Of a DNA stretch of 64,000 nucleotides, positions 473 to 47,661 are shown piece after piece. The notes under the pieces were generated by a model, which saw nothing but the letters and a program-made list of their open reading frames with translations, did not search any database and was not told where the DNA came from. Made by a program: the position numbers and the translations under genes. Every line of letters begins with the position of its first letter. Positions within the stretch are counted from its first letter, which is position 1. The DNA lies in the IMG/VR virus record IMGVR_UViG_3300033182_001261, positions 1-64,000 of that record. The stretch is one strand, 5' to 3'. The DNA comes from a virus.

Positions 473-1942
473 ATGAACAGAATATCACAATACAAAAGAT
501 ATCTTGATGAGAAAAGTGGTATACAGGAAAAAGAAGAAGTAGTCGAAGAGTTGCCTTTAATAGAGGAAGAAGTACTGAAACCTTCCGAAATTAAGTTACT
601 AGTTCTGACTTCTGCCAAGGATAGTGAAGAACCTACTGTAAATCGTCTAGAGAAAGTTTGTGAAAAAAGGAAAATAAAACTTTACAGAATTTCTTCCGAC
701 AAAGCTTACGCATCCAAAAAAGGTGAACTGAAGGAAACTTTAATCATTTACAACTATGATGGTGAAGGAAAAAGTTTAGAAATAGGTGCGAATGAAAATG
801 TAGTTTGTATAGCAAGAAGGACTGTGGTCACAAATAGAAACGCAGGTATTCTTCATAAGATGTTAGCAGACCACGGTGTTTTTTGTATTAACTCTCCTAA
901 GAGTGTACGAACAGCAAGTAATAAGTTTAGTGCTTATATAAACTTTGTCAATAATGATATCAATACACCAAAGACTTGTTTAGTCAGTGATATTGAATAT
1001 ATCGATGATGCTATTAAAGAGGTTGGGGATAAGTTTCCAGTTATCTTGAAGTTCACAGAAGGTCACGGTGGAAAAGGTGTTATGAAACTGGAATCAAGAG
1101 AAAGTTTGATATCAGTCATACAAGCTCTCCGAAGTGATGAAGAAAATTCTATAGAACTAATACTTCAAGAGTATAAGAAAATAAAAGATGACAGAAGAAT
1201 CCTAGTATTGAATAATAAAGTTGTCGCAGCTGCCAGAAGAATTAAAATGAAAAATGATTTTCGTACAAATGTTTCCCTTGGTGCTGATGTAGAACCATAT
1301 AAACCAACTAAAGAGGAAGTGGATTTGGCAATTAAAACTGCTAAATCTGTTGATTGCTATTACTGTGGTGTTGATATTATAAAGAGTGGTGGGGAATATT
1401 TTGTTTTAGAAGTGAATCCATCTCCTGGATCCAAATCACATTACTGGGATTTGGAGAAAAAATCTAACATAACAGGAACCAAATTGGTTGCCAAAGTAGT
1501 AGATAATCTAGTTGATAAAGATAATTGGAAATATCAAACAAGAGAAGTTGGAGTCATAGAGAATATAAAGTTTTTAGAGAATGGAATCGAACCTATGACT
1601 GCTAAAATGGACACAGGTAATAGTGGTCATAATGTCGTTGGTGTTACGGATTTAAAAGTAAATGGGAAAACTGCTGAATTTTATATAAAAGATACAAACC
1701 AAAAAATTAAAAAAGAAGTTCTTCCTGAAAAGTCTGTTATAAAAAATAACGGAGATGATAGTGAAGAAAGATATGTTGTCAAATTTGATATTAAAATTGG
1801 TGAAAAAGTATATAAAGATGTTCATTTTTCTCTTTCCAATAGAGATAATATGAATCACACTGTTTTAATTTCAAGAAGGTTCATGATAGATTCTAAAATG
1901 AGTGTTAATCCTAATAAAAAGTTCGTTTTAGGAGAATTATAA
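473..1942 (+). CDS. RimK-like ATP-grasp ligase fused to RimB-like retropepsin domain
   Basis: 489 aa. The middle is a RimK-type ATP-grasp domain: a glycine-rich ATP loop 'EGHGGKGVMKL', 'QEYKK', and the metal/ATP strand 'YFVLEVNPSPGSKSH'. RimK enzymes add glutamate to protein C-termini. The last ~140 residues begin 'MTAKMDTGNSGHNVV', with the aspartic-protease D-T-G triad, and end with 'TVLISRRFMIDSKMSVNP', matching the single-domain RimB/retropepsin-like family. In bacteria RimK and RimB are separate proteins; here they are fused. The start at 473 is preferred over 467 because AGGA at 463-466 then sits 6 nt away. The N-terminus 'MNRISQYKRYLDE' resembles the capsid-targeting tag of later genes. 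Substrate unknown. Confidence 0.8.
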   Translation: MNRISQYKRYLDEKSGIQEKEEVVEELPLIEEEVLKPSEIKLLVLTSAKDSEEPTVNRLEKVCEKRKIKLYRISSDKAYASKKGELKETLIIYNYDGEGKSLEIGANENVVCIARRTVVTNRNAGILHKMLADHGVFCINSPKSVRTASNKFSAYINFVNNDINTPKTCLVSDIEYIDDAIKEVGDKFPVILKFTEGHGGKGVMKLESRESLISVIQALRSDEENSIELILQEYKKIKDDRRILVLNNKVVAAARRIKMKNDFRTNVSLGADVEPYKPTKEEVDLAIKTAKSVDCYYCGVDIIKSGGEYFVLEVNPSPGSKSHYWDLEKKSNITGTKLVAKVVDNLVDKDNWKYQTREVGVIENIKFLENGIEPMTAKMDTGNSGHNVVGVTDLKVNGKTAEFYIKDTNQKIKKEVLPEKSVIKNNGDDSEERYVVKFDIKIGEKVYKDVHFSLSNRDNMNHTVLISRRFMIDSKMSVNPNKKFVLGEL

Positions 1943-4489: not shown

Positions 4490-4504
4490 TATTTATTGTA
4501 TAAT
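4476..4504 (+). promoter_or_regulatory. Sigma70-like promoter for ftsH
   Basis: TTGAAA (4476-4481), 17-bp spacer, TATAAT (4499-4504), at the 3' end of the zincin gene and 37 nt before the ftsH ATG. Confidence 0.6.
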
Positions 4505-4540
4505 ATTAATATAGTACTACTTTATTTGATGGAGAAAGTG

Positions 4541-7351: not shown

Positions 7352-7366
7352 TTTTTATTCTATAAT
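7338..7366 (+). promoter_or_regulatory. Sigma70 promoter of primase gene, leaderless geometry
   Basis: TTGACA (7338-7343), 17-bp spacer, TATAAT (7361-7366). Only 6 nt separate the -10 box from the primase ATG at 7373, so the predicted transcript starts at or next to the A of ATG. No ribosome site is present. Confidence 0.7.
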
Positions 7367-7372
7367 AAACTT

Positions 7373-8389: not shown

Positions 8390-8556
8390 ACAAAGAGCAG
8401 GAAACAGACCTTAAAGAATCACTCGTCAGAACAAGAGATTTTCTAAATTTTTTAACAAATTATGAAGATTTACCTGCTTTTGTTAAATTGGATGCCAAAA
8501 GTTTGCTTAAACAGTTCCCAACAGATTACAATATCACAAGATTGTTTAACAAGTGA
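8386..8556 (+). CDS. Small hypothetical protein
   Basis: 56 aa helical acidic protein. The start at 8386 (ATGA overlap with the primase stop) is preferred over 8374 because GGAGAA lies 6 nt before it. No family recognised. It lies between primase and the IMPDH/GMPR gene in the same transcript. Confidence 0.55.
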   Translation: MNKEQETDLKESLVRTRDFLNFLTNYEDLPAFVKLDAKSLLKQFPTDYNITRLFNK

Positions 8557-8562
8557 GTTCAT

Positions 8563-9579: not shown

Positions 9580-9602
9580 AAGGAAGAATAGGAGAAAAAA
9601 AG

Positions 9603-16662: not shown

Positions 16663-17874
16663 ATGAAAATGTTTTTGGTATATTCTCTTTTCTTCTTTTT
16701 AGCAGTTTCACATTCCTTTAGTGATAATGCTGTTTTTGAAAAAATAAAAAATGGAACTGTTGTAATTAAGATGATGTTAGGATCTGAGAGTCGACACACT
16801 TTTAAGAATGTTGGTTCTGGGTTTATAGTTGACTCTAAAAAAGGCTATGTTATGACTTGTGCTCATGTTCTTGCTGGATGGCACGAAAGAGACAAAGATG
16901 ACAGAACATTAGCAGTTGGTTTGTTTGATGGGAGAACTGTCAAAGCAAAAACTGTATTGATGTATTACAATAGAGATGTTGCAATAGTCAAGATGATACC
17001 TAACCAGTATGTAAAACTTCCTCTTCCAGATGATTATCAAGTCTCTTTTAGAAATTCTCACGACTTAGGAATGGGTGAAAAAGTTTTTGTTCTTGGTAAT
17101 CCTATGGGTATGCAGAGAATAATGACATCTGGTATTGTCTCAAGCTTAGGTAAAAGAGTTCAAATGCCTAATCCTACACTTTACGAAAATATGATTCAAA
17201 CTGACGCAACTATCACTGGTGGTAATTCTGGTGGAGCTCTTTTTGATGGTTCAGGAAATGTTATTGGATGTGTTGTAATATCACTCAAAGATATGTATGC
17301 TTTTGCAATTCCAAGTGGTCTTTTGATACAAGTCTGGGATACATTTCTAAGTAGAAAAGTTATAGAAGCACCAATGATAGGGTTTTCTGCTCGTGATTCA
17401 AACCCAAAAGATGATAAGAGAATAAACTATCAAAGTCATATGGGTGTCATTGTCAATAAAGTTCTAAAAGGTTCTCCTGCAGCAAAAGTTCTTAAAGCAG
17501 GTGATTATATTGTAAGTCTGGACGGTGATAGAACATATGCTTCATCAATTCTAAGAGCACTATTACATGATAAGTTTGTTGGGTCCAGTTTTCAAATAAC
17601 TTATTTCAGAGATGGTAAGATGGAAACATCAAAAATCAAAACAGTAAATTCTTATTTTGATTTGAGGCAGGAAGATATTGTTATCACCAAAGAAGATAAG
17701 AAAATCACTGAGAAGAAAATAAAAAGAAAAAACCTTCATATTGAAATATTTAAAAACTTATACGGTGTCCCAAAGATTAAGAGAAGTATAACAAGAAAAG
17801 ATAAGAAGAATAAGGTAACTCCTTATCAGAAAAAATATCGTGAAACTGTTATGAAGATGGGAAATTATATTTGA
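16663..17874 (+). CDS. Secreted HtrA/DegP-like serine protease with PDZ domain
   Basis: 403 aa. The N-terminus is a signal peptide ('MKMFLVYSLFFFLAVSHSFS'). A trypsin-like domain follows with a complete triad: His ~68 in 'TCAHVLAG', Asp ~105 in 'NRDVAIVK', Ser ~189 in 'TGGNSGGALF'. One PDZ-like domain (~260-326, 'VLKGSPAAKVLKAGDYIVSLDG') is followed by a basic tail. HtrA proteases degrade misfolded periplasmic proteins; a phage copy could act in the host envelope. The start at 16663 gives the signal peptide and follows GGGGGAAA. Confidence 0.9.
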   Translation: MKMFLVYSLFFFLAVSHSFSDNAVFEKIKNGTVVIKMMLGSESRHTFKNVGSGFIVDSKKGYVMTCAHVLAGWHERDKDDRTLAVGLFDGRTVKAKTVLMYYNRDVAIVKMIPNQYVKLPLPDDYQVSFRNSHDLGMGEKVFVLGNPMGMQRIMTSGIVSSLGKRVQMPNPTLYENMIQTDATITGGNSGGALFDGSGNVIGCVVISLKDMYAFAIPSGLLIQVWDTFLSRKVIEAPMIGFSARDSNPKDDKRINYQSHMGVIVNKVLKGSPAAKVLKAGDYIVSLDGDRTYASSILRALLHDKFVGSSFQITYFRDGKMETSKIKTVNSYFDLRQEDIVITKEDKKITEKKIKRKNLHIEIFKNLYGVPKIKRSITRKDKKNKVTPYQKKYRETVMKMGNYI

Positions 17875-26377: not shown

Positions 26378-26914
26378 ATGAAAAATTATAGTGTTTTAGA
26401 TTTTCTAGAAGAGAAAAAAGAAGAAGCAAAGAAAGATACAGTCCAAGATAAGGATATCAAAGATAGAAAAGGTTCTCAACCTAAGAAGTACTACAAAGGT
26501 CTTGCTAAATCAACAAAAGAGAAACGTGCTGCTCATTTTAAAAAGGGTGCAGCAATGAGTGATGATGACCCAAGAGCATATAAGAAAGCTCCTGGAGACG
26601 CAAGAGCGAAAACAAAAGAATCAGAATACACCAAAAAGTATAAAGAGAAGTATGGAGAAGAAGTTGAAAATGATTCTGATATACTACTAGAGAATCCTGA
26701 TAAATCTCTCAAGAAGAAAGCAGAGAAGTCTGGGATTGCGTTCTCAATACTGAAGCAAGTATATAAGAGAGGTGTTGCTGCGTGGAGAACAGGACATCGT
26801 CCTGGAACTACTCCTGAGCAGTGGGCGATGGCTCGCACTAACTCGTTTATTGTTGGAGGTAAGACGAGAACAACTGCTGATGCTGACTTATGGAAGAAAC
26901 ATAAGGGGAAATAA
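26378..26914 (+). CDS. Basic protein with capsid-targeting-like N-terminus (DUF5824-like)
   Basis: 178 aa. N-terminus 'MKNYSVLDFLEE' fits the recurrent Y-x-[VIL]-x-D-[FY]-[LI]-x-E tag. The C-terminal ~70 residues, 'GIAFSILKQVYKRGVAAWRT' then 'GTTPEQWAMARTNSFI', belong to a conserved phage domain that I recall as DUF5824. The rest is K/E-rich. Proposed internal head protein; cleavage would follow the glutamate near residue 12. Confidence 0.7.
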   Translation: MKNYSVLDFLEEKKEEAKKDTVQDKDIKDRKGSQPKKYYKGLAKSTKEKRAAHFKKGAAMSDDDPRAYKKAPGDARAKTKESEYTKKYKEKYGEEVENDSDILLENPDKSLKKKAEKSGIAFSILKQVYKRGVAAWRTGHRPGTTPEQWAMARTNSFIVGGKTRTTADADLWKKHKGK

Positions 26915-26915
26915 A

Positions 26916-28538
26916 ATGAAAAAGAGAAGATACTTTTTAGAAGATTACATTACAGAGGCGTCATTATCAGCTAAAGAGGTTGCTAAAAGGGGTAATCTTA
27001 AAATATTTTTAAGAAAATGGGTAGAAGGTGAACCTTTCGAAAAAACGGATGGTTCTCAAATCACTCTTGTTAAACCTTCCATACCTGATTTTAAAAATGA
27101 ATATTGGCAGTTTCGGAAAGATGAAACGAAAAATGATTTAAATCCAGAGAGACAACTCTATGCGCATATAACAGGGCAACTTAAAGGAGGTGTTGATATA
27201 CCGACTACTGATGGAGGCACTGTTAGATTGAGTAAGTTATTAAAAACATCCGAATTTGGAGGAGCAGGTGGTTCCAAAGGACCTTCTGGAGAAGATTGGG
27301 AAGCAATGATTGCTGTTGGTTTAGCAGTCATCGATGGGAAATCAGGGAAAACTCTCCCTGATGAGTGGAAAAGAGTTGAAAAATATTGGGGAAATGATGA
27401 ATTGAGAGAACAGGCAATGAATTTAGCAAATTCTTTTAAGAGTTCTGGATACTCTCCAATGAAACAAACTGGAAGTGGTAAGGGTGGTTCGGCAGTTTCT
27501 TCTATTTGGAAGAAATTATATGAAAAACACGGCGGTGGAGGAAAAATGAACAGTACTCCAAAAACAGATGTTATTGGTGGAGGTGTCAAAATATCTCTCA
27601 AAAAAGTTGGAGGTTCTCAGGCTATGAGTTCTAAAAACCAAGAAGCTTTTGCAACTTTTGAAGCAGCAATGTTATTATATGGAGAAAAATATCCAGGAGA
27701 AGTGAATAAAATATTAACATCCTTAAAAAACGATGTTTTAGATTTTGAGAGAAGTGGATATAAAGGAACTATAGGACAACTCAAAAAAGACCTTAAAGCA
27801 GCAGAGAGTGATCCAAGTAAATTTACTAAGAGTGAGTTGACTAAACTTAAATCTTATAAAGATGATATGGATGCTTCCTACAAAAACGCAGATAAATTAA
27901 CGAAACTAGTCAACGATATATTCCAAAAAAGTCCTAGGATGAAACAATTGTTTTTATTTGAAGCTTCTTCTGGGTCTGTTAAATTTGGAGATAAATCCAA
28001 CTCAAGAGCAGATAGATTAGTTGAGTTTGACCCAGAAAAAGGTAAAATAACTGCTGATTGGGATATTAAAACTCCAGATTCAATTGCATCGATTATGAGT
28101 AAATATAAAATTTACTTTGCTTTTAAAACTAGTGGAGATTCACCTTATATTTCACTAAGAGGGAGTATGTTGGCGTCATTGGGTGAAAGTGCTGAATATA
28201 CAGAAGATTGTCCAACTTTTTCATCAATTATTAAAGAGGCATTTAATGAAAATGAATTTGGAAGAACCTTATTATCAGAAGAATATAGTCAATTGGATGA
28301 GTTTCAATTGTTCCAAAAGATTAAATCAAAAGTTTCGGATATTAAATCAAAAGTTTTAAATAGTAAAGTGGTACAAAAGTTTTTACAAATATGGGAACGG
28401 ATAAAACAGAAAATGTCAAAGGCTTTTGATTGGATTATAAAACAAGGAAAAATGGCATTAAGTTATTTGTTGAAGTTTTTTGGAATGAAACCTTCAAGAG
28501 TTAGAGTGAATGGACCAATAGAGTTATTTACGGAGTAA
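26916..28538 (+). CDS. Large protein with capsid-targeting-like N-terminus and TSEFGG domain
   Basis: 540 aa. Starts 'MKKRRYFLEDYITEASLS', with I-T-E just before Ala as in T4 internal proteins. Residues ~100-120 hold 'LLKTSEFGGAGGSKG', a motif shared with the inverted gene at 28543 and, in my recollection, with PD-(D/E)xK-like phage proteins. The middle is charged and helical; the C-terminus is basic and amphipathic. Start 26916 is chosen because the tag and GGGGAAAT then fit; the longer frame from 26772 lies in the previous gene. Confidence 0.65.
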   Translation: MKKRRYFLEDYITEASLSAKEVAKRGNLKIFLRKWVEGEPFEKTDGSQITLVKPSIPDFKNEYWQFRKDETKNDLNPERQLYAHITGQLKGGVDIPTTDGGTVRLSKLLKTSEFGGAGGSKGPSGEDWEAMIAVGLAVIDGKSGKTLPDEWKRVEKYWGNDELREQAMNLANSFKSSGYSPMKQTGSGKGGSAVSSIWKKLYEKHGGGGKMNSTPKTDVIGGGVKISLKKVGGSQAMSSKNQEAFATFEAAMLLYGEKYPGEVNKILTSLKNDVLDFERSGYKGTIGQLKKDLKAAESDPSKFTKSELTKLKSYKDDMDASYKNADKLTKLVNDIFQKSPRMKQLFLFEASSGSVKFGDKSNSRADRLVEFDPEKGKITADWDIKTPDSIASIMSKYKIYFAFKTSGDSPYISLRGSMLASLGESAEYTEDCPTFSSIIKEAFNENEFGRTLLSEEYSQLDEFQLFQKIKSKVSDIKSKVLNSKVVQKFLQIWERIKQKMSKAFDWIIKQGKMALSYLLKFFGMKPSRVRVNGPIELFTE

Positions 28539-28542
28539 TGAA

Positions 28543-29736
28543 TTATTTGTTAGGTTTTATATTACCTTCATTATCACAAATATGAGTTATTTTCCGACCA
28601 CCCTTAGAAAATATTGAAAATCTCATTCCCCTGATGCCGAAATCGGATCGAACTCCTTTTGCATTGGGGTTTAATATTTTTTCAGAAGAGCCCTTTTTCA
28701 TAGCCATTAAGTAAGGTTCGTAATCACCTGTAAGAGGAGTTCCGTTCAATTTCATAGGACCACTTGATTTCAATAAATATACATCACCTTGTTTTTTTAG
28801 TTTTGGGTCTCCTTGTAATATTGCATGGACATTATTTTCACCTTTAATTGAATTGTAATTTGGTCCGTAGGTAGCTCTACAAGAAAGTAAATTATTTTCA
28901 ATTTTTTTAGCTATTGTGAACCCTGTTTGCATATGCCATTTAGGATTATCTGTGGTATATTTTTTAACTTTTTCTATGAAATAGAGAACTTCTGGATCAT
29001 TTGATATAATTTTACCTGCTTTTGAACTCATTCCACTCCATTGACCAAAATCTTTTGCGTGACTGCCTTTTTTATGTGATATGTGCACTTCATTAACCAA
29101 TTTTCCATTTTTATATGAAACCAAAGTTAGGTCGGATTTAGGGGTTCCTGAGACTTTATTAACACCGACGATATTTTTAAATATATCTTGACCAATTTTA
29201 ATATCTATTCCATATGTTAATTTATTTTCTTTTTTTACGATATCGCATATCATTTTATTAAAATCATTAATAAAATCCTTCTCACCAGACTCACTAGCAG
29301 TAGGGTTATTTAAAATGTATGATGATAGTTTTTGCTCCTCTTTTATCAAAGATATTTGTCCCCATTCTATGTTACCTTTTTTCGTTGAAGATTTTGAATC
29401 TATTCCCCCAAATTCAGAAGTTTTTAAGATATTTCCTGTGGATATTTTCACCGAATCTTTACAGACCCACATTTTAGCCGATTTTGTTTCTGGTGGTAGT
29501 ACACTTTCAAATTTTGTTTTGAATTTTTCAAAACTCATGGTTTTTTTAATTTCTATAACAGTCTCTTTTCCTTTCCCCACTTTAATTATCATTTTATTAA
29601 ATACAAATTTTAATGATTTCCCAACGGAGATTGGTTTTATTAAATCTACAGGTATTTCTTTTGTTGCTTTTTCATGAATCACTTTCAAATTATTATTATA
29701 TCTTTTATTGAAGTGACTCCAAGTTAATCCTGCCAT
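28543..29736 (-). CDS. PD-(D/E)xK-like nuclease candidate, inverted gene
   Basis: 397 aa, the only leftward gene in the first 36 kb. Contains 'ILKTSEFGGIDSK' (shared with 26916) and 'GTPKSDLTLVSYKNG' then 'NEVHISHKKGSHAKDFGQWSG', which reads as the D...[EQ]-x-K strand pair of a restriction-type nuclease fold (Asp in 'KSDL', E/H-I-S-H-K). It has an AGGAG site, ends 4 bp from the convergent neighbour, and does not carry the capsid tag. It may be an anti-host or anti-phage nuclease acquired as a unit. Confidence 0.6.
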   Translation of the reverse strand: MAGLTWSHFNKRYNNNLKVIHEKATKEIPVDLIKPISVGKSLKFVFNKMIIKVGKGKETVIEIKKTMSFEKFKTKFESVLPPETKSAKMWVCKDSVKISTGNILKTSEFGGIDSKSSTKKGNIEWGQISLIKEEQKLSSYILNNPTASESGEKDFINDFNKMICDIVKKENKLTYGIDIKIGQDIFKNIVGVNKVSGTPKSDLTLVSYKNGKLVNEVHISHKKGSHAKDFGQWSGMSSKAGKIISNDPEVLYFIEKVKKYTTDNPKWHMQTGFTIAKKIENNLLSCRATYGPNYNSIKGENNVHAILQGDPKLKKQGDVYLLKSSGPMKLNGTPLTGDYEPYLMAMKKGSSEKILNPNAKGVRSDFGIRGMRFSIFSKGGRKITHICDNEGNIKPNK

Positions 29737-29784
29737 ATAAACTCCTATTTTTATTTATTAGAAGTATAACATAAGTAAAAATAC

Positions 29785-29813
29785 TTGACAATACCTTTCA
29801 AATAGTATATTAT
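29785..29813 (+). promoter_or_regulatory. Sigma70-like promoter
   Basis: TTGACA (29785-29790), 17-bp spacer, TATTAT (29808-29813); TATAAATA overlaps just downstream (29812-29819 region). Serves the gene at 29845, divergent from the inverted nuclease-like gene. Confidence 0.65.
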
Positions 29814-29844
29814 ATAAATATATTCATAACAGAGGGTGAATGTA

Positions 29845-30255
29845 ATGTCCATTAAAAGAATATATAGTGTAAGAGACTTTCTGAATGAGGATTCTGAAAA
29901 AGTTGATGAGTTCTTTATTCGTAGTATGAAGAAAAGACCAAAACCTAAATATAACGATGAGGATCGTTTTGTTCCCGATGATAAAGATATTGATTATGAT
30001 AAGTTGATAAGTTTTGACAGAAACAGAGTTAATAAGATATCGAGTGTCATTTCCGCTTACCTACACAGATATTCTTCAAACTCGAAAAAGAAAGAAGATA
30101 CCATATACTTACATTTTCAACCCACTATTCGTTCATCTTTTGAGGATGTCAAGAAGCAACTCTCAAAACTAAAAAATGTTCTGAAAATAAAAAGTATAAG
30201 AGTGATGAATAGTTTAATCATGGTCACTCTTAAAAACCAACACAAATATGCGTAA
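29845..30255 (+). CDS. Basic protein with capsid-targeting-like N-terminus
   Basis: 136 aa. 'MSIKRIYSVRDFLNEDSEK' matches the tag (Y-S-V-R-D-F-L-N-E). The body is charged, with 'ISSVISAYLHRYSS' and a C-terminal beta-rich segment. ATG at 29845 preferred over GTG 29836 on AGAGGG spacing. Ends TAATG-overlapping the next gene. Function after injection unknown. Confidence 0.6.
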   Translation: MSIKRIYSVRDFLNEDSEKVDEFFIRSMKKRPKPKYNDEDRFVPDDKDIDYDKLISFDRNRVNKISSVISAYLHRYSSNSKKKEDTIYLHFQPTIRSSFEDVKKQLSKLKNVLKIKSIRVMNSLIMVTLKNQHKYA

Positions 30256-30482
30256 TGAATAAGAAAATTCTGAAAGAAGTGAATGAAGTTGCATGTGAAA
30301 TTATTCGTGGAGATTGTGATATAAATAAAACTAGCAAGGTTTATAAAAAGTTGATAAAAGAGATAGACAGGTTAGAGAAAAAGAAGAAAAAGACTAAGCA
30401 TACTATTGATTTGATAACTTCCGCAAAAAAGTTAGCAGAAACTATGAAAGTTTATATAGATGTGAGTGGAATTATAAAATGA
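30255..30482 (+). CDS. Small helical basic protein
   Basis: 75 aa, highly charged coiled-coil-like protein ('KKLIKEIDRLEKKKKKTKH'). Start overlaps the previous stop. No motif. Confidence 0.5.
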   Translation: MNKKILKEVNEVACEIIRGDCDINKTSKVYKKLIKEIDRLEKKKKKTKHTIDLITSAKKLAETMKVYIDVSGIIK

Positions 30483-30494
30483 AAAGAGAATGAA

Positions 30495-30701
30495 ATGAAG
30501 CATGGTAGAAGGGCGCAACAACAAAGAAGAAAACTACGTAATAAGATTGTAGAACAATCTAATAATTCACATACCAAAGAGAGTTTAATAGGAAATTCTG
30601 TTGAAGAGTTGAAAGAAATACTCGAAAGATTTTCACTCACAAAAGAAGAATCCTCAGATATTTCTTCAATCATACCAGAACAGGAAATAGACAAAGAATA
30701 A
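30495..30701 (+). CDS. Small basic protein
   Basis: 68 aa: an Arg/Lys/Gln-rich start ('MKHGRRAQQQRRKLRNK') and an acidic C-terminal helix. May bind nucleic acid by charge only. Followed directly by the next ATG. Confidence 0.5.
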   Translation: MKHGRRAQQQRRKLRNKIVEQSNNSHTKESLIGNSVEELKEILERFSLTKEESSDISSIIPEQEIDKE

Positions 30702-30968
30702 ATGGAATCAGGTAAGTTAAATATGGATTTAAAAGGCAACCCTTATCAATGGGTTAAAACAAACAACCCTAATATTTATAAGTTAGAAACAAACTTATCT
30801 ACTCAGAATTGTAAAATTCGAAGAGATATTGAATCGAATGATATAGAGATGATTGAACTGAATCAAGGTCCAAAATTCACCAACAGAATGTTGATAGACA
30901 ATAAAAGAATTGATAGGTTTGTATTAAATCTCGGAGAAATCACGGCAGAGTGTAAGAATTTGATATAA
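30702..30968 (+). CDS. Small hypothetical protein
   Basis: 88 aa, begins immediately after the previous stop codon. 'DLKGNPYQWVKTNNPNIYKL' suggests a small beta domain. No family recognised. Confidence 0.5.
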   Translation: MESGKLNMDLKGNPYQWVKTNNPNIYKLETNLSTQNCKIRRDIESNDIEMIELNQGPKFTNRMLIDNKRIDRFVLNLGEITAECKNLI

Positions 30969-31088
30969 CACACAAAAAAGTCTAAATTAGATATTTTTTT
31001 GTAAAAAATATATATTTAAATATACCAATAAATATATGTTTGGGGTATCGCGAGCAGTTCGGCATTCCGAAAAAAACCAGAGGTTTAT

Positions 31089-31700
31089 ATGAAAATGTAT
31101 AAAATACAAGACTATTTGACTGAACAGGAAAACGGTTTTCTAATATACTGCGATATGGACGGAGTACTCACAAATTATGACGGTCATTTCATTGAATATT
31201 ATCATAATCAGTTCCGAGAAACTGAACTATATCTAAAAGACTCTGATAGTTATCCTGAGTTTCCAAATGCTAAAACTGCAAATGATATCACAGGCAATCT
31301 ACACAAGAAAAAGAAGTATGAGGTTGCTAAAAAAGCGTCGAAAGAATTCTGGAGTGATATGCCTTGGCATCCGGATGGTAAAGCATTATGGAAAGCAATC
31401 AAACCACTCAACCCTATAATTCTATCAACTCCTGCTGCGAGCAAAAATAGTGAAGATGGAAAAAGGGAATGGGTCAAAACTCAACTCAAAATATCAACAG
31501 TAATTTTGAGTTCTAACAAATATGAATATGTGAAAGATAATCTATTCGTCCCAAAAGGAAAAGAAAACTATAAAAGAATTCTGATTGACGATACACCAAA
31601 GAAGATATCAGGATGGAATTCCGCAGGAGGAATAGGCATTCTACATAAATCCTCAAGAGACACAATATCAAAACTTAAAAAACTAGGAGCAATCAAATGA
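31089..31700 (+). CDS. HAD-superfamily phosphatase with capsid-targeting-like N-terminus
   Basis: 203 aa. The first 12 residues 'MKMYKIQDYLTE' match the tag. Directly after comes HAD motif I, 'IYCDMDGVLTNYDG' (nucleophile Asp and acid/base Asp), motif II around 'PIILSTPAAS', and motif IV 'RILIDDTPKKI'. HAD enzymes of this size include 5'(3')-nucleotidases. If packaged, it could act on host nucleotides on entry. AGAGG site upstream. Confidence 0.75.
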   Translation: MKMYKIQDYLTEQENGFLIYCDMDGVLTNYDGHFIEYYHNQFRETELYLKDSDSYPEFPNAKTANDITGNLHKKKKYEVAKKASKEFWSDMPWHPDGKALWKAIKPLNPIILSTPAASKNSEDGKREWVKTQLKISTVILSSNKYEYVKDNLFVPKGKENYKRILIDDTPKKISGWNSAGGIGILHKSSRDTISKLKKLGAIK

Positions 31701-31843
31701 TTTCATCTATATGTACACTATCAATTATTATATTAGTATCAGTTATCCTTACAAATGTTCAAATGAAAGCAAACAGAAGGATGAAGCAATTAGAGAATTC
31801 AAGAATTGTGAAAGAGGTGATAGATGAGATAAATAATAAATAA
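31697..31843 (+). CDS. Small membrane-anchored protein
   Basis: 48 aa, ATGA-coupled to the HAD gene. One N-terminal membrane helix ('ICTLSIIILVSVILTN') then a charged helix. Function unknown. Confidence 0.5.
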   Translation: MISSICTLSIIILVSVILTNVQMKANRRMKQLENSRIVKEVIDEINNK

Positions 31844-31860
31844 GAGATGAAAGGAATATC

Positions 31861-32100
31861 ATGGAAGAAGATGGTCATAACCCAATTTGGACACAGATTC
31901 CCAATTTAAGTGGTTGGGAATATGACGCAGCTGCCGAAAGGAAGCATACATATTCTGATAGCCCCGGAACTATAACTGGTGGAGTTAGACAATATACCAC
32001 CGCATCAGGAAATGTTTGCGAAACTTATATTAGATGTAGACAGATAGAACATCCTACAAGAATCTTAGGGGAAGTTAGTAAAACGTATTACGATAAATAA
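31861..32100 (+). CDS. Small hypothetical protein
   Basis: 79 aa with an AAAGGA site. 'HNPIWTQIPNLSGWEYDAA' and 'SGNVCETYIRCRQI' suggest a compact beta fold. Ends in tandem stops that also form the GATAAATA box before the next gene. Confidence 0.5.
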   Translation: MEEDGHNPIWTQIPNLSGWEYDAAAERKHTYSDSPGTITGGVRQYTTASGNVCETYIRCRQIEHPTRILGEVSKTYYDK

Positions 32101-32104
32101 TAGT

Positions 32105-32287
32105 ATGATAACATTCTTACTATGCTTTATAATAATTATTCTACTCACCAATACCATCATAACTCATATTGAAATAAAAAGAATGCTTAAGTTGTTGAAT
32201 GATGAAAATCCAGATGAGTTCAAAGAGAAAATCAAAGAGTTCAAAAACGAATACAGAACATTCATTAAACGATGGGGAAAGTTCTAA
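32105..32287 (+). CDS. Small membrane-anchored protein
   Basis: 60 aa: N-terminal membrane helix ('MITFLLCFIIIILLTNTII') plus charged helix. No ribosome site; GATAAATA ends 5 nt before the ATG. Similar in layout to the protein at 31697. Confidence 0.5.
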   Translation: MITFLLCFIIIILLTNTIITHIEIKRMLKLLNDENPDEFKEKIKEFKNEYRTFIKRWGKF

Positions 32288-32303
32288 CATATTATAAATA
32301 TAC

Positions 32304-32332
32304 TTGACAAGACCTACTTTATATACTATAAT
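32304..32332 (+). promoter_or_regulatory. Consensus sigma70 promoter
   Basis: TTGACA (32304-32309), 17-bp spacer, TATAAT (32327-32332), then a TATATAAGGTTGAG leader and AAAGGTGAG before the J-domain gene. Confidence 0.85.
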
Positions 32333-32363
32333 AATTATATAAGGTTGAGTAAAAGGTGAGAAC

Positions 32364-32678
32364 ATGAAAAGACAATACAGACTCGAAGACTTCCTCATAG
32401 AGATGTCTGCCTCAGAAGCAGAACAAATTCTTGGACTCTCTGGTAGCTACTCAGCAGCACAAGTTAAAAGTTCCTATAAAAAGATGTCTCTGAAACATCA
32501 TCCTGATAAAGGTGGATCAACAGAGATGATGAAAAAAGTCAATGCTGCATACTTCGAAAATAGATTATATAGTGATAGTGTAAGATGGAAAGAAATGGAA
32601 TTCATAAAAGTTGATCCAAAAGAACTAATTCCTGAAGATTCCATAAAAACTTTCTACCTTTGGTATAAAAATAGATAG
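32364..32678 (+). CDS. J-domain co-chaperone with capsid-targeting-like N-terminus
   Basis: 104 aa. 'MKRQYRLEDFLIE' is the tag (L-I-E then Met). Then a complete J-domain: 'EAEQILGLSGSYSAAQVKSSYKKMSLKHHPDKGG' split by the HPD tripeptide that stimulates Hsp70, and 'MKKVNAAYFENRL'. It would recruit host DnaK. The tag suggests delivery with the DNA, while the consensus promoter suggests early synthesis too. Confidence 0.8.
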   Translation: MKRQYRLEDFLIEMSASEAEQILGLSGSYSAAQVKSSYKKMSLKHHPDKGGSTEMMKKVNAAYFENRLYSDSVRWKEMEFIKVDPKELIPEDSIKTFYLWYKNR

Positions 32679-40630: not shown

Positions 40631-41794
40631 TTAGTTTTCGAACCATGCTTTGGTGTCACCAGATTGGACAACCAATGATTCATCTTCTTCTTCAACTTCT
40701 TCTGTAACTTCTGAAATCTTTCCGTACAGGTCTACAAAACTGTCTCTTGTGATATCATCAAAACGATTCACAGTAAGTTTGATAGATTCTTCAACATCCC
40801 CAAAGATTTTATACGTTTGTAAGATAGAGATTAAACGACGAGTTGTTATCAAATCATTTATCGCACCACTTTCGAAACTATCTCTTGTGATTGTCGCCCA
40901 CTCTACAAGATTTTCGGTGATGACTTCCGCCTCTTCATCGAGAACACCAATTTGATTCTTCCAAAACTTTCTCAATATCTTATTCTCAATTGATTTACTT
41001 GGATAGGATTGTACAACTGTTATCGGGAATCTTTCAAGGAACGACTCATTCAGGAACCCAGTCCCATAAAACTTTCCAAGTTCGTCACCCTGACCCTTTG
41101 TATTAGCAGTAGCAAAGATTGTAAATCCTTCAGCAGGTTTCACCCAACGATTTACTTTCTTTAAGAAAACTCCCTTACCTTCAAGAACTGACTGGATACA
41201 CATTATTTTGTTAGATGCCAAATCAATCTCGTCAAGCAGGAGCACCCCACCCCTTTGCATTGCTTTTACAATTGGTCCATCGAACCATATAGTTTCACCA
41301 TTCACCAGTCGGAACCCACCTAGTAAATCATCTTCATCAGTTTCAATAGTAATGTTGACTCTATACAACTCTCTAGAAAGATTCGCACAAGACTGCTCTA
41401 CCATCATTGTCTTACCATTACCAGAGAGACCAGTAATAAACAATGGGTGAAATACTCTAGACTCAATAATCTTCTCAATAGTCTTGTAGTGTCCCCATGA
41501 GATATAGTTCTCATCTACTTCTGGAGTGAATGCAAGACTTTCGGGAGTTGATTTCAGTTCTTCGGTGTTCTTTGCCTTTTCAGAATTCTTAGAGGGGGAT
41601 TTCGAAGATTTTGGAAATATATATAATCCCCTTTTGGTTGATTTGTCACATAGAGTGATAACCTTTCTCAAAAGTTTGTCAATACTTTCAGAGTCGATAC
41701 CAATCTCTTCCGAAAAACTTCTCAAGTCTTTCCTTGTGACTTCCTTGCCAGAGAATTCCTCTGAGAGCATACCAAAGAACTTTTCAAATTTCAT
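40631..41794 (-). CDS. CobS/MoxR-like AAA+ ATPase, copy A
   Basis: 387 aa. Residues 1-110 are a variable helical domain. The AAA+ core has Walker A 'GLSGNGKTMM', 'ETDEDDLLGGFRLVNG' (CobS-like insert), Walker B 'GGVLLLDEIDLAS', sensor 1 'IFATANTKGQGDE' and Arg finger region 'NESFLERFP'. MoxR/CobS ATPases work with VWA proteins to load metals or remodel complexes; phage copies are often named cobS. About 60% similar by eye to copy B. A VWA partner lies upstream at 46472, separated by other genes. Confidence 0.85.
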   Translation of the reverse strand: MKFEKFFGMLSEEFSGKEVTRKDLRSFSEEIGIDSESIDKLLRKVITLCDKSTKRGLYIFPKSSKSPSKNSEKAKNTEELKSTPESLAFTPEVDENYISWGHYKTIEKIIESRVFHPLFITGLSGNGKTMMVEQSCANLSRELYRVNITIETDEDDLLGGFRLVNGETIWFDGPIVKAMQRGGVLLLDEIDLASNKIMCIQSVLEGKGVFLKKVNRWVKPAEGFTIFATANTKGQGDELGKFYGTGFLNESFLERFPITVVQSYPSKSIENKILRKFWKNQIGVLDEEAEVITENLVEWATITRDSFESGAINDLITTRRLISILQTYKIFGDVEESIKLTVNRFDDITRDSFVDLYGKISEVTEEVEEEDESLVVQSGDTKAWFEN

Positions 41795-41817
41795 ACTTTA
41801 CCTTTTCACTTATACTA

Positions 41818-41846
41818 ATATTAACATATTAGGGATTGTTTGTCAA
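41818..41846 (-). promoter_or_regulatory. Sigma70-like promoter for AAA ATPase A
   Basis: Leftward TTGACA, 17-bp spacer, TAATAT. Weaker -10 than others. Confidence 0.6.
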
Positions 41847-41945
41847 TGAGTTTTTATATTATTTCTAAATATACTTATATGGCTTTGTAAGTTCTGTTTT
41901 CAGCATTTACCTGCGAATAGTAGGTGGGACGAAACCCACTGGTGA

Positions 41946-42104
41946 CTATGACTTTTGTACCAAGGTGTTCCAGATTCTTTTTCTACCTTTTCTATCCTGT
42001 CGTTTCCAATTCTTCCACCACATATCATCTGGTCTACGATTATAAACCTCTTTGTATACGTCACTAACATCCATATCATCAAAAGGGAATTCATTCAAAA
42101 GCAT
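41946..42104 (-). CDS. Very small protein
   Basis: 52 aa, 'MLLNEFPFDDMDVSDVYKEV' followed by a W/K/R-rich end ('MWWKNWKRQDRKGRKR'). AAAGGACTTT upstream. This frame is preferred over the overlapping frame 41900-42094 on start site and composition. Function unknown. Confidence 0.5.
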   Translation of the reverse strand: MLLNEFPFDDMDVSDVYKEVYNRRPDDMWWKNWKRQDRKGRKRIWNTLVQKS

Positions 42105-42129
42105 AGTAAAGTCCTTTTCAAGTTTATAG

Positions 42130-42336
42130 TTAATTTATAACACGTTCTTTTGATTTGTCGTCTTCATCTTCTTCTATTTCATCGGGTATCTCTTCAACGT
42201 TATTGATAGCTTTAAGAACTATCTCTTCTATTATATCATCCGAAACTGATATATGGTTAGAATTAAAGAAGTCACTCCACTCTTTCTTTAAGGACTCCTC
42301 TAATTTTTTTTCAGATTTGGAATTATTTTTTCTCAT
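42130..42336 (-). CDS. Small acidic early protein
   Basis: 68 aa, starting 'MRKNNSKSEKKLEESLKKEW' with an acidic C-terminus (runs of E and D). Start 42336 follows AAAGAGA; a longer frame reaches 42438 but runs into the divergent gene. Function unknown. Confidence 0.5.
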   Translation of the reverse strand: MRKNNSKSEKKLEESLKKEWSDFFNSNHISVSDDIIEEIVLKAINNVEEIPDEIEEDEDDKSKERVIN

Positions 42337-42350
42337 AGTCTCTTTTTTTG

Positions 42351-42358
42351 TATAAATA
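42351..42358 (+). promoter_or_regulatory. T4-late-like TATAAATA box
   Basis: TATAAATA 30 nt before the rightward GTG at 42389, with TAGGGG between. Gives a rightward island in the leftward half its own late promoter. Confidence 0.55.
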
Positions 42359-42388
42359 TATTTATATTCTTTAGTGTAGGGGTTTAAA

Positions 42389-43120
42389 GTGAGATATAAC
42401 ACTAATTTTTCAAGGTTTATAGAAACCATAGGATTCAATCAGTATCCTGATTATTATTGCAAATACAATCAACTAGCTGTTGGTCAAGGGTTCATCATAC
42501 CAAGTTACCAAAACCAAACAGCGGATTTCAAAACTAAAACAGGAGAAGATTTTTGTTTAAGTAGAAAATTCATTGATTTGAAATGTAACATTTTCGTCAA
42601 AACACAGGACGGATTCACACGTTCACATAACGTTGGTAGAAATGTAGGTTTAATGTTAAACTCTTTCAGTTACACTTCCACTAACAACCACTACAAGAAG
42701 TTTAGTAGAAAAGAAATAGATGAGAACCTCCTACTGTTTCCAATCAAGTATGCTTACAATATGAATAAGACTGATATTCATTCCATAAGAATAGGTGATG
42801 TTATAGTTGCTAATTCCTTTTGGGAAGATATCGATAAAAAATATTCAGAGTATTATAATGATTGCCCAGAACAAATAAACCCACACTTCATATGCGGTGA
42901 AGTTGTAGAAATACATAAAAGTAAACTGACACAAACTTGCACATATAAAGTTCAGACCTCCAAAACCGAGAAGAAGTTTTTTGATGTTAAGGTAACACTT
43001 TCGGACATATTTAACTTCAACTCAGCAAACTATACTAGTGTTTACAGATTAGATAAAACTATTAGAAGAGGGCATGTAAAAGTTAAACTCTTCTTGAATA
43101 TGAATTACTGTATGGAATGA
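42389..43120 (+). CDS. Hypothetical protein, rightward island
   Basis: 243 aa, GTG start after TAGGGG. 'NQLAVGQGFIIPSYQNQTAD', 'IDLKCNIFVKTQDGFTRSHN' and 'IHSIRIGDVIVANSFWEDID' give a mixed alpha/beta pattern with no recognised family. A late-like box precedes it, suggesting virion or late function. Ends overlapping the convergent gene by 16 bp. Confidence 0.6.
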   Translation: MRYNTNFSRFIETIGFNQYPDYYCKYNQLAVGQGFIIPSYQNQTADFKTKTGEDFCLSRKFIDLKCNIFVKTQDGFTRSHNVGRNVGLMLNSFSYTSTNNHYKKFSRKEIDENLLLFPIKYAYNMNKTDIHSIRIGDVIVANSFWEDIDKKYSEYYNDCPEQINPHFICGEVVEIHKSKLTQTCTYKVQTSKTEKKFFDVKVTLSDIFNFNSANYTSVYRLDKTIRRGHVKVKLFLNMNYCME

Positions 43121-43668
43121 TAATAGGATTTAAAGTTACTGTATGATCTATACTCTTCTTTTGGAATTTGATCTGAAGGTATGTGCGCATAAAACGTGAC
43201 GTTTTCATATTTCGAGATAACCTCTTTCCATCTAGGAACCCAGTAGGAATTTAAATTTCTTTTTCTAGTTCTAGGGACCAGATTGTCCATCTGACTGTGA
43301 AAGTTGTCTTCATATAAAGAGTTGATTCCCCATAAGTGAATTTCTTTTAAATCACTATAAGTTTGACAAACATAGTCAACTGCTATGAGACCAGAGTTGT
43401 ACCAAGACTTTCTTTTATAAACACCTTCCCATTTTCCATGGAGTTTTTTTGATTGACTAACTTTGTAAGTGTCTGGTGGACACCAAATCCTTTTAAGGTT
43501 TATTTTCTTATCACCTATTATCCTAGCAGGTTGAGGATCTATTATAGAAACTATGTCCCACTCAAATCCATGTTGAGGTATATTACAACAGATAACCAAA
43601 TCATAATTTTCATCATTTCTAGAATAAAGATTATTTGATGATCCATTACCTATCAAGCATATTTTCAT
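43105..43668 (-). CDS. Hypothetical protein, possible sugar-linked enzyme
   Basis: 187 aa. 'MKICLIGNGSSNNLYSRNDE' suggests a Rossmann-like N-terminus, followed by 'YDLVICCNIPQHGFEWDIVS' and 'WYNSGLIAVDYVCQTYSDLK', reminiscent of small phage glycan-related proteins (DUF115-like), but not firm. No ribosome site; a TATAAATA box lies 8 nt before the ATG. Confidence 0.5.
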   Translation of the reverse strand: MKICLIGNGSSNNLYSRNDENYDLVICCNIPQHGFEWDIVSIIDPQPARIIGDKKINLKRIWCPPDTYKVSQSKKLHGKWEGVYKRKSWYNSGLIAVDYVCQTYSDLKEIHLWGINSLYEDNFHSQMDNLVPRTRKRNLNSYWVPRWKEVISKYENVTFYAHIPSDQIPKEEYRSYSNFKSYYHSIQ

Positions 43669-43676
43669 AATAAAGA

Positions 43677-43684
43677 TATTTATA
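43677..43684 (-). promoter_or_regulatory. TATAAATA box just before ATG
   Basis: Leftward T4-late-like box 8 nt upstream of the ATG at 43668, so the predicted mRNA has almost no leader. Confidence 0.5.
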
Positions 43685-43967
43685 CTAAACTTAACTTTCT
43701 GATAGCCAGTTCTTTAGAATATCTATCTTTATCATTTATCGACTTGAACAATTTTTTATTTTCTTTGATTCTAAATTTCACACTTGGATTCAAAGACTTA
43801 ATCTTTTCTAAGAAAGTTCTAGCATCGAAATCCAAATCTAGAAAAACTTTAGGTCCTTCAATTCTAGATTGAGATGAGATTTCATCTTGAATATTAAATT
43901 TGAAAACATCCTTTAATTTAACTTCTAACCAAGAGTGACCCATTTCATAAAAAATATTAAATTCCAT
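43680..43967 (-). CDS. Small 'GHxWLEV' polyvalent-type protein
   Basis: 95 aa. 'EMGHSWLEVKLKDVFKF', 'DEISSQSRIEGPKVFLDLDF' and 'DARTFLEKIKS' match a small domain found in phage and plasmid polyvalent proteins (the G-H-x-W-L-x-V ... D-x-D-A-x-x-F pattern). Start 43967 follows AAAGGAG and a promoter at 43997-44025. Role unknown; may be linked to anti-restriction or establishment. Confidence 0.6.
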   Translation of the reverse strand: MEFNIFYEMGHSWLEVKLKDVFKFNIQDEISSQSRIEGPKVFLDLDFDARTFLEKIKSLNPSVKFRIKENKKLFKSINDKDRYSKELAIRKLSLV

Positions 43968-43996
43968 ATTTGTCTCCTTTTTATCCTTATATAATA

Positions 43997-44025
43997 AGTA
44001 TAACAAATGTGAACTACTATGTCAA
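43997..44025 (-). promoter_or_regulatory. Sigma70 promoter with conserved leader
   Basis: Leftward TTGACA, 17-bp spacer, TATACT, then TATTATATAAGG and AAAAAGGAG. Drives 43967. Confidence 0.82.
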
Positions 44026-44041
44026 TACCTTTTACAAAAAA

Positions 44042-44323
44042 TTAATCTATTCTTAAATTGCTCCATTTCTTCAACTTCTCTCTTTTAGATTTGGAATTCT
44101 TTATCAATTCATTTTTGTTTATTAGTCCATATTCTTGTAAAAGGTCAATCATACAAAGCAAGTCTCCGATTTCTCTTGAAAGACTTCCAACCTCTTCATC
44201 ATTTCTTCCGAATCTAATAATCTTAGAAGCTTCTACAGTAGCTTCTGCGCACTCCTCCATAAAGATAACTAACAGTTCTTCTTTCTCATCAATCGAAATA
44301 TTTTCAGTAGCATACTTTTTCAT
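44042..44323 (-). CDS. MazG-like nucleotide pyrophosphohydrolase
   Basis: 93 aa, all-alpha. 'VIFMEECAEATVEASKIIRF' carries the E-E-x-x-E metal motif and 'SREIGDLLCMIDLLQEY' the E-x-x-D motif of MazG-like NTP-PPases. Such phage enzymes hydrolyse dNTPs or alarmones. AAGGAG upstream. Confidence 0.78.
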   Translation of the reverse strand: MKKYATENISIDEKEELLVIFMEECAEATVEASKIIRFGRNDEEVGSLSREIGDLLCMIDLLQEYGLINKNELIKNSKSKREKLKKWSNLRID

Positions 44324-44339
44324 ATGAACTCCTTTTGAT

Positions 44340-44347
44340 TATAAATA
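44340..44347 (+). promoter_or_regulatory. TATAAATA box just before ATG
   Basis: T4-late-like box ending 4 nt before ATG 44352 (10 nt before ATG 44358); no ribosome site. Predicted leaderless late transcript. Confidence 0.5.
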
Positions 44348-44351
44348 TTAA

Positions 44352-44762
44352 ATGATTATGATTAAACTTCTACTCGCTTTGCTTATAAAACACGCTATAT
44401 GTGATTTGTATTTACAAAACAAGAGAAACCCTACGGATAAATCAAAATACATAGGTGAATGTCACACTCACTATCTTGACCATTTTTTACTAACCCTTTT
44501 AGTTTGTTACATCTTCTTGATTCCACTTGAAATCTGTTTTGTATTATCTTCAATTGATTACATTGCTCACTGGCACATAGATTACACAAAAACTAAAATA
44601 ATAAGATTTTTTAGAATTAACTTGAACAGTATAGTTTTTTGGTTATTACAAACCATCGATCAAATATTACATTACTCAACTTATTTCCTAATAGTGTATA
44701 TAGTTCAGAACAACTTATCATTTCATCACATCTTCAAAAAATTTATTTCTCCTCTTTTCTAA
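44352..44762 (+). CDS. DUF3307-like membrane protein
   Basis: 136 aa, three or four hydrophobic segments. 'KHAICDLYLQNKR', 'HTHYLDHFLLTLL', 'SSIDYIAHWHIDYTK' and 'LQTIDQILHYSTYF' keep the H/D/Q pattern of the DUF3307 membrane family. ATG 44358 is an alternative start. Rightward gene in the leftward half, with a late-like box. Function unknown. Confidence 0.6.
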   Translation: MIMIKLLLALLIKHAICDLYLQNKRNPTDKSKYIGECHTHYLDHFLLTLLVCYIFLIPLEICFVLSSIDYIAHWHIDYTKTKIIRFFRINLNSIVFWLLQTIDQILHYSTYFLIVYIVQNNLSFHHIFKKFISPLF

Positions 44763-45098
44763 AATTTCAAATTCTTTACTTTTAGGAAAAATCACCTTTA
44801 AGAATCTGTATCTATCATCTTCAATTTTAGTAAACTTCATTCCTTTGAAATTTGTTAAAAATATAGTCACATGAGTTCTTTTATAATAAACACTCAACTT
44901 AAAATAATTAACCATCTCAATCAATCTCTGTAAATCAAAAGTTTTCGGTATGATTATAAACTTTTCTGATTTTTCACAAGCTTCTGAAATTTTCTTAAGA
45001 ACTGTCAAATTGTGTTTGTCAAAAATTAGAGATTTCTGCTCTTCTTCCATTTCATCTATTTTACTGGAAAGTTTCTTAAAAAAATTCTTAGGTAACAT
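44718..45098 (-). CDS. Hypothetical protein
   Basis: 126 aa, helical and charged ('KKLSSKIDEMEEEQKSLIF') with a beta-like centre. Overlaps the convergent DUF3307-like gene. No ribosome site; a TATAAATA box lies 5 nt before the ATG (see leaderless finding). Confidence 0.5.
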   Translation of the reverse strand: MLPKNFFKKLSSKIDEMEEEQKSLIFDKHNLTVLKKISEACEKSEKFIIIPKTFDLQRLIEMVNYFKLSVYYKRTHVTIFLTNFKGMKFTKIEDDRYRFLKVIFPKSKEFEILEKRRNKFFEDVMK

Positions 45099-45103
45099 AA
45101 ACG

Positions 45104-45111
45104 TATTTATA
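45104..45111 (-). promoter_or_regulatory. TATAAATA box 5 nt before ATG
   Basis: Leftward T4-late-like box with a 5-nt gap to ATG 45098. Confidence 0.5.
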
Positions 45112-46417: not shown

Positions 46418-46438
46418 ATTATCTCCTAACCTATTATA

Positions 46439-46467
46439 AGGATAACAAATATAGAGGTGTTTGTCAA
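46439..46467 (-). promoter_or_regulatory. Sigma70-like promoter for ligase
   Basis: Leftward TTGACA, 17-bp spacer, TATCCT, then a TAGGAG-containing leader. Confidence 0.65.
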
Positions 46468-46471
46468 TAGA

Positions 46472-47659: not shown

Positions 47660-47661
47660 AT

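What the first reader, a model, noticed from the sequence alone, without database searches (positions are those of the whole stretch)
26378..32678. A set of unrelated proteins share an N-terminal capsid-targeting-like tag
Seen: MKNYSVLDFLEE (26378), MKKRRYFLEDYITE (26916), MSIKRIYSVRDFLNE (29845), MKMYKIQDYLTE (31089), MKRQYRLEDFLIE (32364), and more loosely MNRISQYKRYLDE (473). The bodies are unrelated: DUF5824-like, TSEFGG protein, HAD phosphatase, J-domain protein, ATP-grasp/retropepsin fusion. Established: T4 internal proteins carry MKTYQEFIAEA-type tags cut by the prohead protease after [LI]-x-E. Inference: these are packaged in the head, processed and injected.
Basis: partly seen in the sequence, partly recalled or inferred. 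Interest (0 to 1): 0.85.

Follow-up and report, generated by a model that had tools for sequence, protein, structure and literature searches.

The report
Phage proteins with head-packing address tags
Five unrelated proteins of an uncultured T4-like phage start with the same short address label, which resembles the label phage T4 uses to load proteins into its head before injection, so it probably marks the cargo this virus carries into its host.

Summary
Five unrelated window proteins (26378, 26916, 29845, 31089, 32364) start with one motif, Y-x-[LIV]-x-D-[FY]-[LI]-x-E. It occurs exactly five times in all six frames of the 77-kb contig, always at a gene start. A sixth, looser case (473) is doubtful: the sister phage has lost its glutamate.

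The motif keeps most of the T4 IPIII capsid-targeting sequence (MKTYQEFIAE): the second aromatic and the processing residues [LI]-x-E, with a shifted first aromatic. The contig lacks the head genes, but a collinear sister phage (65% median protein identity) has the T4-type prohead protease, the Gp23 capsid protein and the same tag on the two full orthologs it shares. Homologs in other T4-like phages carry their own tag versions. Capsid propeptides of 19 T4-like records show a matching candidate site, established only in T4. One tagged cyanophage protein (S-SM1 gp190) was found in purified virions in published proteomics.

Best reading: a lineage-specific T4-type capsid-targeting sequence on a mixed cargo. 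Packaging is well supported but indirect, cleavage is inferred from site identity, injection by analogy. The mechanism is known; the cargo and tag variant are new.

The parts
26378..26413 (+). tag MKNYSVLDFLEE; predicted cut after E12
26378..26914 (+). tagged DUF5824 protein, 178 aa
   Evidence: Pfam PF19141 E 1.6e-22; homologs in Kyanoviridae, some tagged
26916..26957 (+). tag MKKRRYFLEDYITE; predicted cut after E14
26916..28538 (+). tagged 540-aa protein of a phage family with TPKTD...SLK..GGSQ; nuclease-like at most
   Evidence: alignment of homologs; several homologs tagged, others not
29845..29889 (+). tag MSIKRIYSVRDFLNE; predicted cut after E15
   Evidence: ortholog MNRRYKIKNFLNED in the sister
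29845..30255 (+). tagged protein of unknown family, 136 aa
   Evidence: no family match; sister ortholog 62% identical
31089..31124 (+). tag MKMYKIQDYLTE; predicted cut after E12
31089..31700 (+). tagged HAD 5'-nucleotidase-like protein, 203 aa
   Evidence: phrog_2643 E 3e-23
32364..32402 (+). tag MKRQYRLEDFLIE; predicted cut after E13
   Evidence: ortholog MRRYNIDNYLTE in the sister
32364..32678 (+). tagged J-domain protein, 104 aa
   Evidence: DnaJ E 6e-9; tagged homologs
473..511 (+). doubtful tag MNRISQYKRYLDE
   Evidence: T4-type match; glutamate missing in the sister
473..1942 (+). RimK-type ATP-grasp + RimB/retropepsin-like protein
   Evidence: tagged relatives in Mosig and Melnitz
28543..29736 (-). 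untagged, restriction-enzyme-like protein on the other strand between tagged genes; contrast to the tagged set
   Evidence: PADLOC REase_II E 5e-10, phrog_13937
29785..29813 (+). sigma-70-like promoter, 11 of 12, upstream of 29845
   Evidence: consensus match only
32304..32332 (+). sigma-70-like promoter, 12 of 12, upstream of 32364
   Evidence: consensus match only

Best explanation
The tag is a T4-type capsid-targeting sequence in a lineage-specific form. The first 12-15 residues bind the scaffolding core while the prohead assembles and draw the attached protein inside. The T4-gp21-type S77 prohead protease then cuts after [LI]-x-E, freeing the body, which stays in the head with the DNA and enters the next host cell. 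The cargo is interchangeable: a DUF5824 protein, a possibly nuclease-like protein, a J-domain protein, a HAD nucleotidase and one unknown protein. Shown: the motif, its position, its conservation on orthologs and homologs, and the S77 protease and Gp23 capsid protein in the sister. Inferred from matching sites: cleavage. Inferred from T4 and one virion-proven tagged homolog: packaging. Untested: injection and the role in the host, most likely counter-defence or early takeover.
For: Motif five times in six frames, only at gene starts. Sister phage with S77 and Gp23 keeps the class residues of the tag on both full orthologs while spacer residues change. Tagged homologs of the bodies in Mosig, Melnitz, C48C1, VmeM-32, V45v66, SRB7757 and metagenomic contigs; all named ones encode S77. 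L014 has a run of about ten T4-like tags on many bodies, including J-domain, DUF5824 and cytidylyltransferase. The motif recovers exactly IPII and IPIII in T4 plus one false hit. T4-strict pattern at 15/1835 N-termini vs 16/19836 internal windows in 10 S77+ genomes, 0/527 in 3 S77- phages. Capsid propeptide sites have the same [LIV]xE form. S-SM1 gp190, detected in virions (PMC3037559), starts MKKFSAFLNEA. In T4, residues 4 and 7 target and 8 and 10 direct processing (PMC9026906), and gp21 cuts after L/I-x-E.
Against: No capsid or protease gene on this contig (fragment). The first aromatic is shifted by two residues relative to T4. 473 loses the glutamate in the sister. Untagged homologs in S77+ phages: S-CAM9, S-PRM1, phiM12, Margaery; the closest metagenomic homologs of 26916 have no clear tag. 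Loose motif not enriched in 80 gp32 neighbourhoods. The S77+ genomes were mostly chosen for holding relatives. No virion data for this phage.
Confidence: 0.8

Rival explanations
1. The peptide targets the proteins to the prohead core, but they act as assembly or scaffold factors and are not delivered to the host as effectors.
For: T4 IPIII also affects head assembly (PMC9026906). A J-domain protein could be a head-assembly chaperone.
Against: The bodies turn over between sister phages and include nucleotidase- and ATP-grasp-like enzymes, unlike a conserved assembly factor.
Confidence: 0.1
2. The N-terminal peptide is a docking motif for another phage or host complex (replisome, chaperone, tail), and the [LI]-x-E ending is coincidental.
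For: Several homologous bodies work without a tag; tag lead differs from T4; no virion data for this phage.
Against: Same ending as capsid propeptide sites, T4-identical tags on homologs, one virion-proven tagged protein, no such tags in three S77-negative phages.
Confidence: 0.06
3. The similarity is not a protein signal but a shared DNA module: a promoter plus gene start copied between genes, or conservation of the translation start.
For: Two tagged genes follow similar TTGACA-17-TATWAT promoters; neighbouring L014 genes share nearly identical starts.
Against: Window tags use different codons, lengths and spacers while keeping the same residue classes; 26916 and 31089 have no such promoter directly upstream.
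Confidence: 0.02
4. Chance resemblance in K/E-rich phage N-termini.
For: The bare [FY][LI].E motif is only 2.7-fold enriched; the long pattern was chosen post hoc.
Against: 0 in 2000 shuffles, leave-one-out fits, conservation in the sister.
Confidence: 0.02

Closest known systems
T4 internal proteins IPI, IPII, IPIII with their capsid-targeting sequence (CTS)
   Same: Short N-terminal tag on unrelated bodies; aromatic before [LI]-x-E; prohead protease of the S77 family in the lineage; polymorphic gene set
   Different: Window tag has Y-x-[LIV]-x-D before the second aromatic instead of Y-x-x; bodies are enzymes, a J-domain protein and a DUF5824 protein, not small basic proteins; no virion data
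T4 Alt (packaged and injected ADP-ribosyltransferase)
   Same: An enzyme carried in the head with a short N-terminal propeptide cut by gp21 (PMC9026906)
   Different: No ADP-ribosyltransferase among the window's tagged proteins
Cyanophage cluster T4-GC190 cytidylyltransferase (S-SM1 gp190)
   Same: T4-like phage protein with tag MKKFSAFLNEA, detected in purified virions (PMC3037559); its wider family is fused or linked to DUF5824, the body of 26378
   Different: Window has no copy of GC190 itself; tag lead differs
Propeptide-bearing ejection proteins of giant phage SPN3US
   Same: Many proteins packaged with the DNA, processed by a prohead protease and ejected (PMC5694885, PMC10052503, abstracts only)
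   Different: Different group of giant phages; this window belongs with T4-like phages by its gp32 and the sister's Gp23

Membership tests
T4-type capsid-targeting sequence (CTS) | tag at the extreme N-terminus, about 10-19 residues | tested here: met
   12-15 residues in all six
T4-type capsid-targeting sequence (CTS) | second aromatic (T4 Phe7), needed for targeting | tested here: met
   F or Y in all six; kept in sister orthologs
T4-type capsid-targeting sequence (CTS) | first aromatic (T4 Tyr4) three residues before the second | tested here: inconclusive
   that place is L/I/V in five of six; a Tyr lies two residues further upstream. T4-like spacing is seen in tagged homologs
T4-type capsid-targeting sequence (CTS) | processing residues [LI]-x-E | tested here: met
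   all six in the window; lost in the sister for 473 only
T4-type capsid-targeting sequence (CTS) | carried by unrelated bodies | tested here: met
   different families or none
T4-type capsid-targeting sequence (CTS) | S77 prohead protease in the same genome | tested here: inconclusive
   not on this fragment; present in the collinear sister
T4-type capsid-targeting sequence (CTS) | cleavage after the glutamate in proheads | not testable with these tools
   only site similarity to capsid propeptides
T4-type capsid-targeting sequence (CTS) | protein found in the virion and injected | not testable with these tools
   one tagged homolog is virion-proven in S-SM1
T4-like phage lineage | T4-type replication and head genes | tested here: met
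   gp32-like protein about 55% identical to cyanophage gp32; sister has Gp23 and S77

The most novel reading that the evidence does not exclude
T4-like viruses of aquatic bacteria share a head-loading code. Each lineage tunes a short N-terminal tag to its own scaffold and prohead protease and uses it to load an interchangeable set of enzymes, so the injected cargo of uncultured phages can be read from sequence. The same enzyme family switches between packaged and cytosolic forms by gaining or losing the tag.
Probability: 0.4. Interest if true: 0.75.

Novelty: new variant of a known kind. Interest (0 to 1): 0.6.

Why it matters
Phage proteins injected with the DNA meet host defences first, yet they are known mainly for T4 and a few giant phages. 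If this tag is a true packaging signal, cargo can be predicted in thousands of uncultured T4-like genomes and tested by virion proteomics of any cultured relative. It also suggests lineage-specific tags for loading foreign proteins into phage heads other than T4's.

Tried and rejected
Bare motif [FY][LI].E: too common to carry the claim. Unbiased set of 80 gp32-neighbourhood loci: loose motif not enriched, T4-strict motif weakly (6/1013), so tags cluster in particular loci. 473 as a sixth tag: glutamate lost in the sister. YerA41 ATP-grasp protein, annotated 'structural protein', as proof that the RimK relative is packaged: it has no [LI]xE tag and many enzymes are particle-associated in that phage (PMC7354516), so it was not used. 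AlphaFold of an L014 tagged family: pLDDT 39, useless; I had suspected an ADP-ribosyltransferase, unsupported. AlphaFold of 26916: pLDDT 54, no fold match; tag residues are low-confidence but so is much of the model; a nuclease fold stays a guess from TPKTD/SLK. Single-sequence viral searches with 26916 and 473 found nothing; an alignment query did. Defence-family search of the tagged bodies: no match.
Full report
What was checked. The window is 64 kb of a 77,326-base virus record; the remaining 13.4 kb were read as L002. The record is a fragment: no S77 protease is found on it, and I saw no capsid, portal or terminase gene among its open reading frames. So the mechanism had to be tested on relatives.

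Is it more than chance? The five clear tags fit Y-x-[LIV]-x-D-[FY]-[LI]-x-E. In all six frames of the contig this pattern occurs five times, each time at the start of a gene. It is absent from the interiors of the called genes, and 2000 shuffles of the N-termini never produced it. The pattern was written after seeing the data, so I also used a leave-one-out rule: each tag fits the rule of the other four at five or six of six positions, and no internal 9-mer fits. A looser T4-derived pattern is found at 7 of 129 N-termini against 5 of 1027 internal windows, P = 9e-5; the seventh match, 60265 on the minus strand, looks accidental. The bare pattern [FY][LI].E alone is only weakly enriched.

What the bodies are. 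26378 is a DUF5824 protein, 31089 a HAD nucleotidase-like protein, 32364 a J-domain protein, 473 a RimK-type ATP-grasp joined to a RimB/retropepsin-like domain. 26916 has no family match; its relatives conserve TPKTD followed by SLK and Q, which suggests but does not show a nuclease. 29845 has no homolog in anything I fetched except the sister phage.

The sister phage. A J-domain search brought in a 136,879-base record, G036. Of 129 window genes, 67 have homologs there, largely in the same order, at a median 65% identity. It encodes an S77 prohead protease and a Gp23 capsid protein. Both tagged genes it shares in full keep the tag: MRRYNIDNYLTEMS against MKRQYRLEDFLIEMS for the J-domain protein, and MNRRYKIKNFLNED against MSIKRIYSVRDFLNED for 29845; the class residues are kept while most spacer residues change. 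It also has a tagged DUF6267-like protein, MSYSIRKYLKED. Its ATP-grasp protein starts MDRISQYKKYLNN, without the glutamate, so 473 is doubtful. It has no match to the window's DUF5824 family or HAD protein, so the cargo turns over.

Homologs in other T4-like phages. Relatives of the tagged bodies carry tags closer to that of T4: the ATP-grasp protein in Mosig (FKNYLEEA) and Melnitz (FSQFITEE) and the relative of 26916 in Melnitz (MQGFKTFLSEA); DUF5824 in phage C48C1 (MITFKKYLEE) and the J-domain protein in Vibrio phage VmeM-32 (MKSTKQFLMEI) and Variovorax phage V45v66 (MNRYESYLREV); the J-domain protein in Nitratidesulfovibrio phage SRB7757 (MKSFKEYISEA). In the viral collection, long J-domain proteins of this type often carry a tag (MKNFKNFLIEI, MKKFKDYLLES, MKSFKDWLIEA, MRFKNFLIEK), while ordinary DnaJ proteins start directly with the J domain. 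One metagenomic contig, L014, has a run of tagged genes from 2471 to 11958, mostly MKTFxQYIxEA, with many different bodies including a J-domain protein, a cytidylyltransferase and DUF5824. All nine named phages searched encode S77 (YerA41 weakly), and all 13 records searched encode Gp23. In ten S77-positive genomes the T4-strict pattern is at 15 of 1835 N-termini against 16 of 19836 internal windows, and at 0 of 527 in three S77-negative phages. Most of these genomes were chosen because they hold relatives, so this is not an unbiased survey; 80 gp32 neighbourhoods show no enrichment of the loose pattern.

The cleavage site. The capsid-protein propeptides of 19 T4-like records have a candidate site of the form [LIV]-x-E, often followed by Ala, at the expected place: T4 SFLTEA, Mosig and Melnitz AFLSEAA, S-CAM9 SFLNEA, V45v66 KFLVEA, SRB7757 RDLNEA, sister YGSLNE. 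The T4 site is established (65-residue gp23 propeptide, PMC9026906); the others are read from sequence by me. Published work gives L/I-x-E as the gp21 rule and maps targeting to residues 4 and 7 and processing to residues 8 and 10 of IPIII.

Virion evidence. Sullivan and colleagues detected the cytidylyltransferase cluster T4-GC190 in purified S-SM1 virions (PMC3037559). In S-SM1 that protein is gp190, and it starts MKKFSAFLNEA, a textbook T4-type tag. The passages of that paper that I read do not mention the tag.

Evidence against. Untagged homologs exist in S77-positive phages, the closest relatives of 26916 lack a clear tag (start calls uncertain), and the tag lead differs from T4 in the spacing of its aromatics. 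These facts suit a tag that is gained and lost, but they also mean that presence of a body family does not predict packaging.

Mechanism. I judge that the tag is a lineage-specific T4-type capsid-targeting sequence (0.8). The chain is: tag binds the scaffold core (inferred); protein enters the prohead (supported by homology and one proteome); S77 protease cuts after [LI]-x-E (inferred from matching sites); the body stays with the DNA and is injected (analogy with T4 internal proteins, where IPI and IPIII counter host defences). Two tagged genes follow strong sigma-70-type promoter matches together with the T4-late-like TATAAATA, which would allow both early and late expression; these are consensus matches only.

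Novelty. The principle is known: a T4 review already proposes that the CTS lets T4-like phages package diverse proteins. New here, as far as the searched literature shows, are the extended tag form and its conservation in this lineage, the enzyme and J-domain cargo, and the agreement between tag endings and capsid sites across T4-like phages of aquatic bacteria.

Noticed in passing
window 9603-11972, insert at about 10970-11415: The ribonucleotide reductase gene carries a roughly 148-aa intein-like insert (TIGR01445 just below cut-off) that the sister phage lacks.
   Followed up: partly
window 40631-48693 and 60605-63984, minus strand: A three-gene module (MoxR-like AAA ATPase, VWA-like protein, peptidase-like protein) is present twice in the contig; both copies match the same single set in the sister.
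   Followed up: partly
window 12707, 34362, 34785; L499 14538: Another shared N-terminus, M-[ED]-x-K-[TV]-I-x-[DE]-I-x-EILQ, on several small proteins; it is not the capsid-type tag.
   Followed up: no
window 26169, 29785, 32304, 33567: Four near-perfect sigma-70 promoters with 17-base spacers lie in this region; TATAAATA occurs 19 times in the window against 8 expected.
   Followed up: no
window 4541-6430, 16663-17874, 51724-53394: The phage encodes an FtsH-family protease, and by eye an HtrA-like serine protease and a subtilisin-like protein.
   Followed up: partly
L014 2471-11958: A run of about ten consecutive tagged genes with several unknown, partly duplicated body families: a candidate cargo island in a metagenomic T4-like contig.
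   Followed up: partly
L010 3939, 17764, 18765 and L133 1803 (Flavobacterium phage immuto): Four genes share a longer N-terminus, F-[DN]-L-[KR]-[KS]-FL-[VT]-EN-[KR]-LT, followed by a second LL/[LI]xE-like site: perhaps an extended tag in Bacteroidota phages.
   Followed up: no
record PV062637.1 3493-5046 (phage SRB7757), L238: The S77 protease domain is split in two pieces inside one 583-aa open frame, so an insert such as an intein may sit in the prohead protease.
   Followed up: no
L005 13272, L497 14812, L014 492, L011 6546: DUF6267 proteins, several of them tagged, have KWDGAPA, like the KxDG motif of nucleotidyltransferases and ligases; a ligase-like role is only a guess from the motif.
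   Followed up: no
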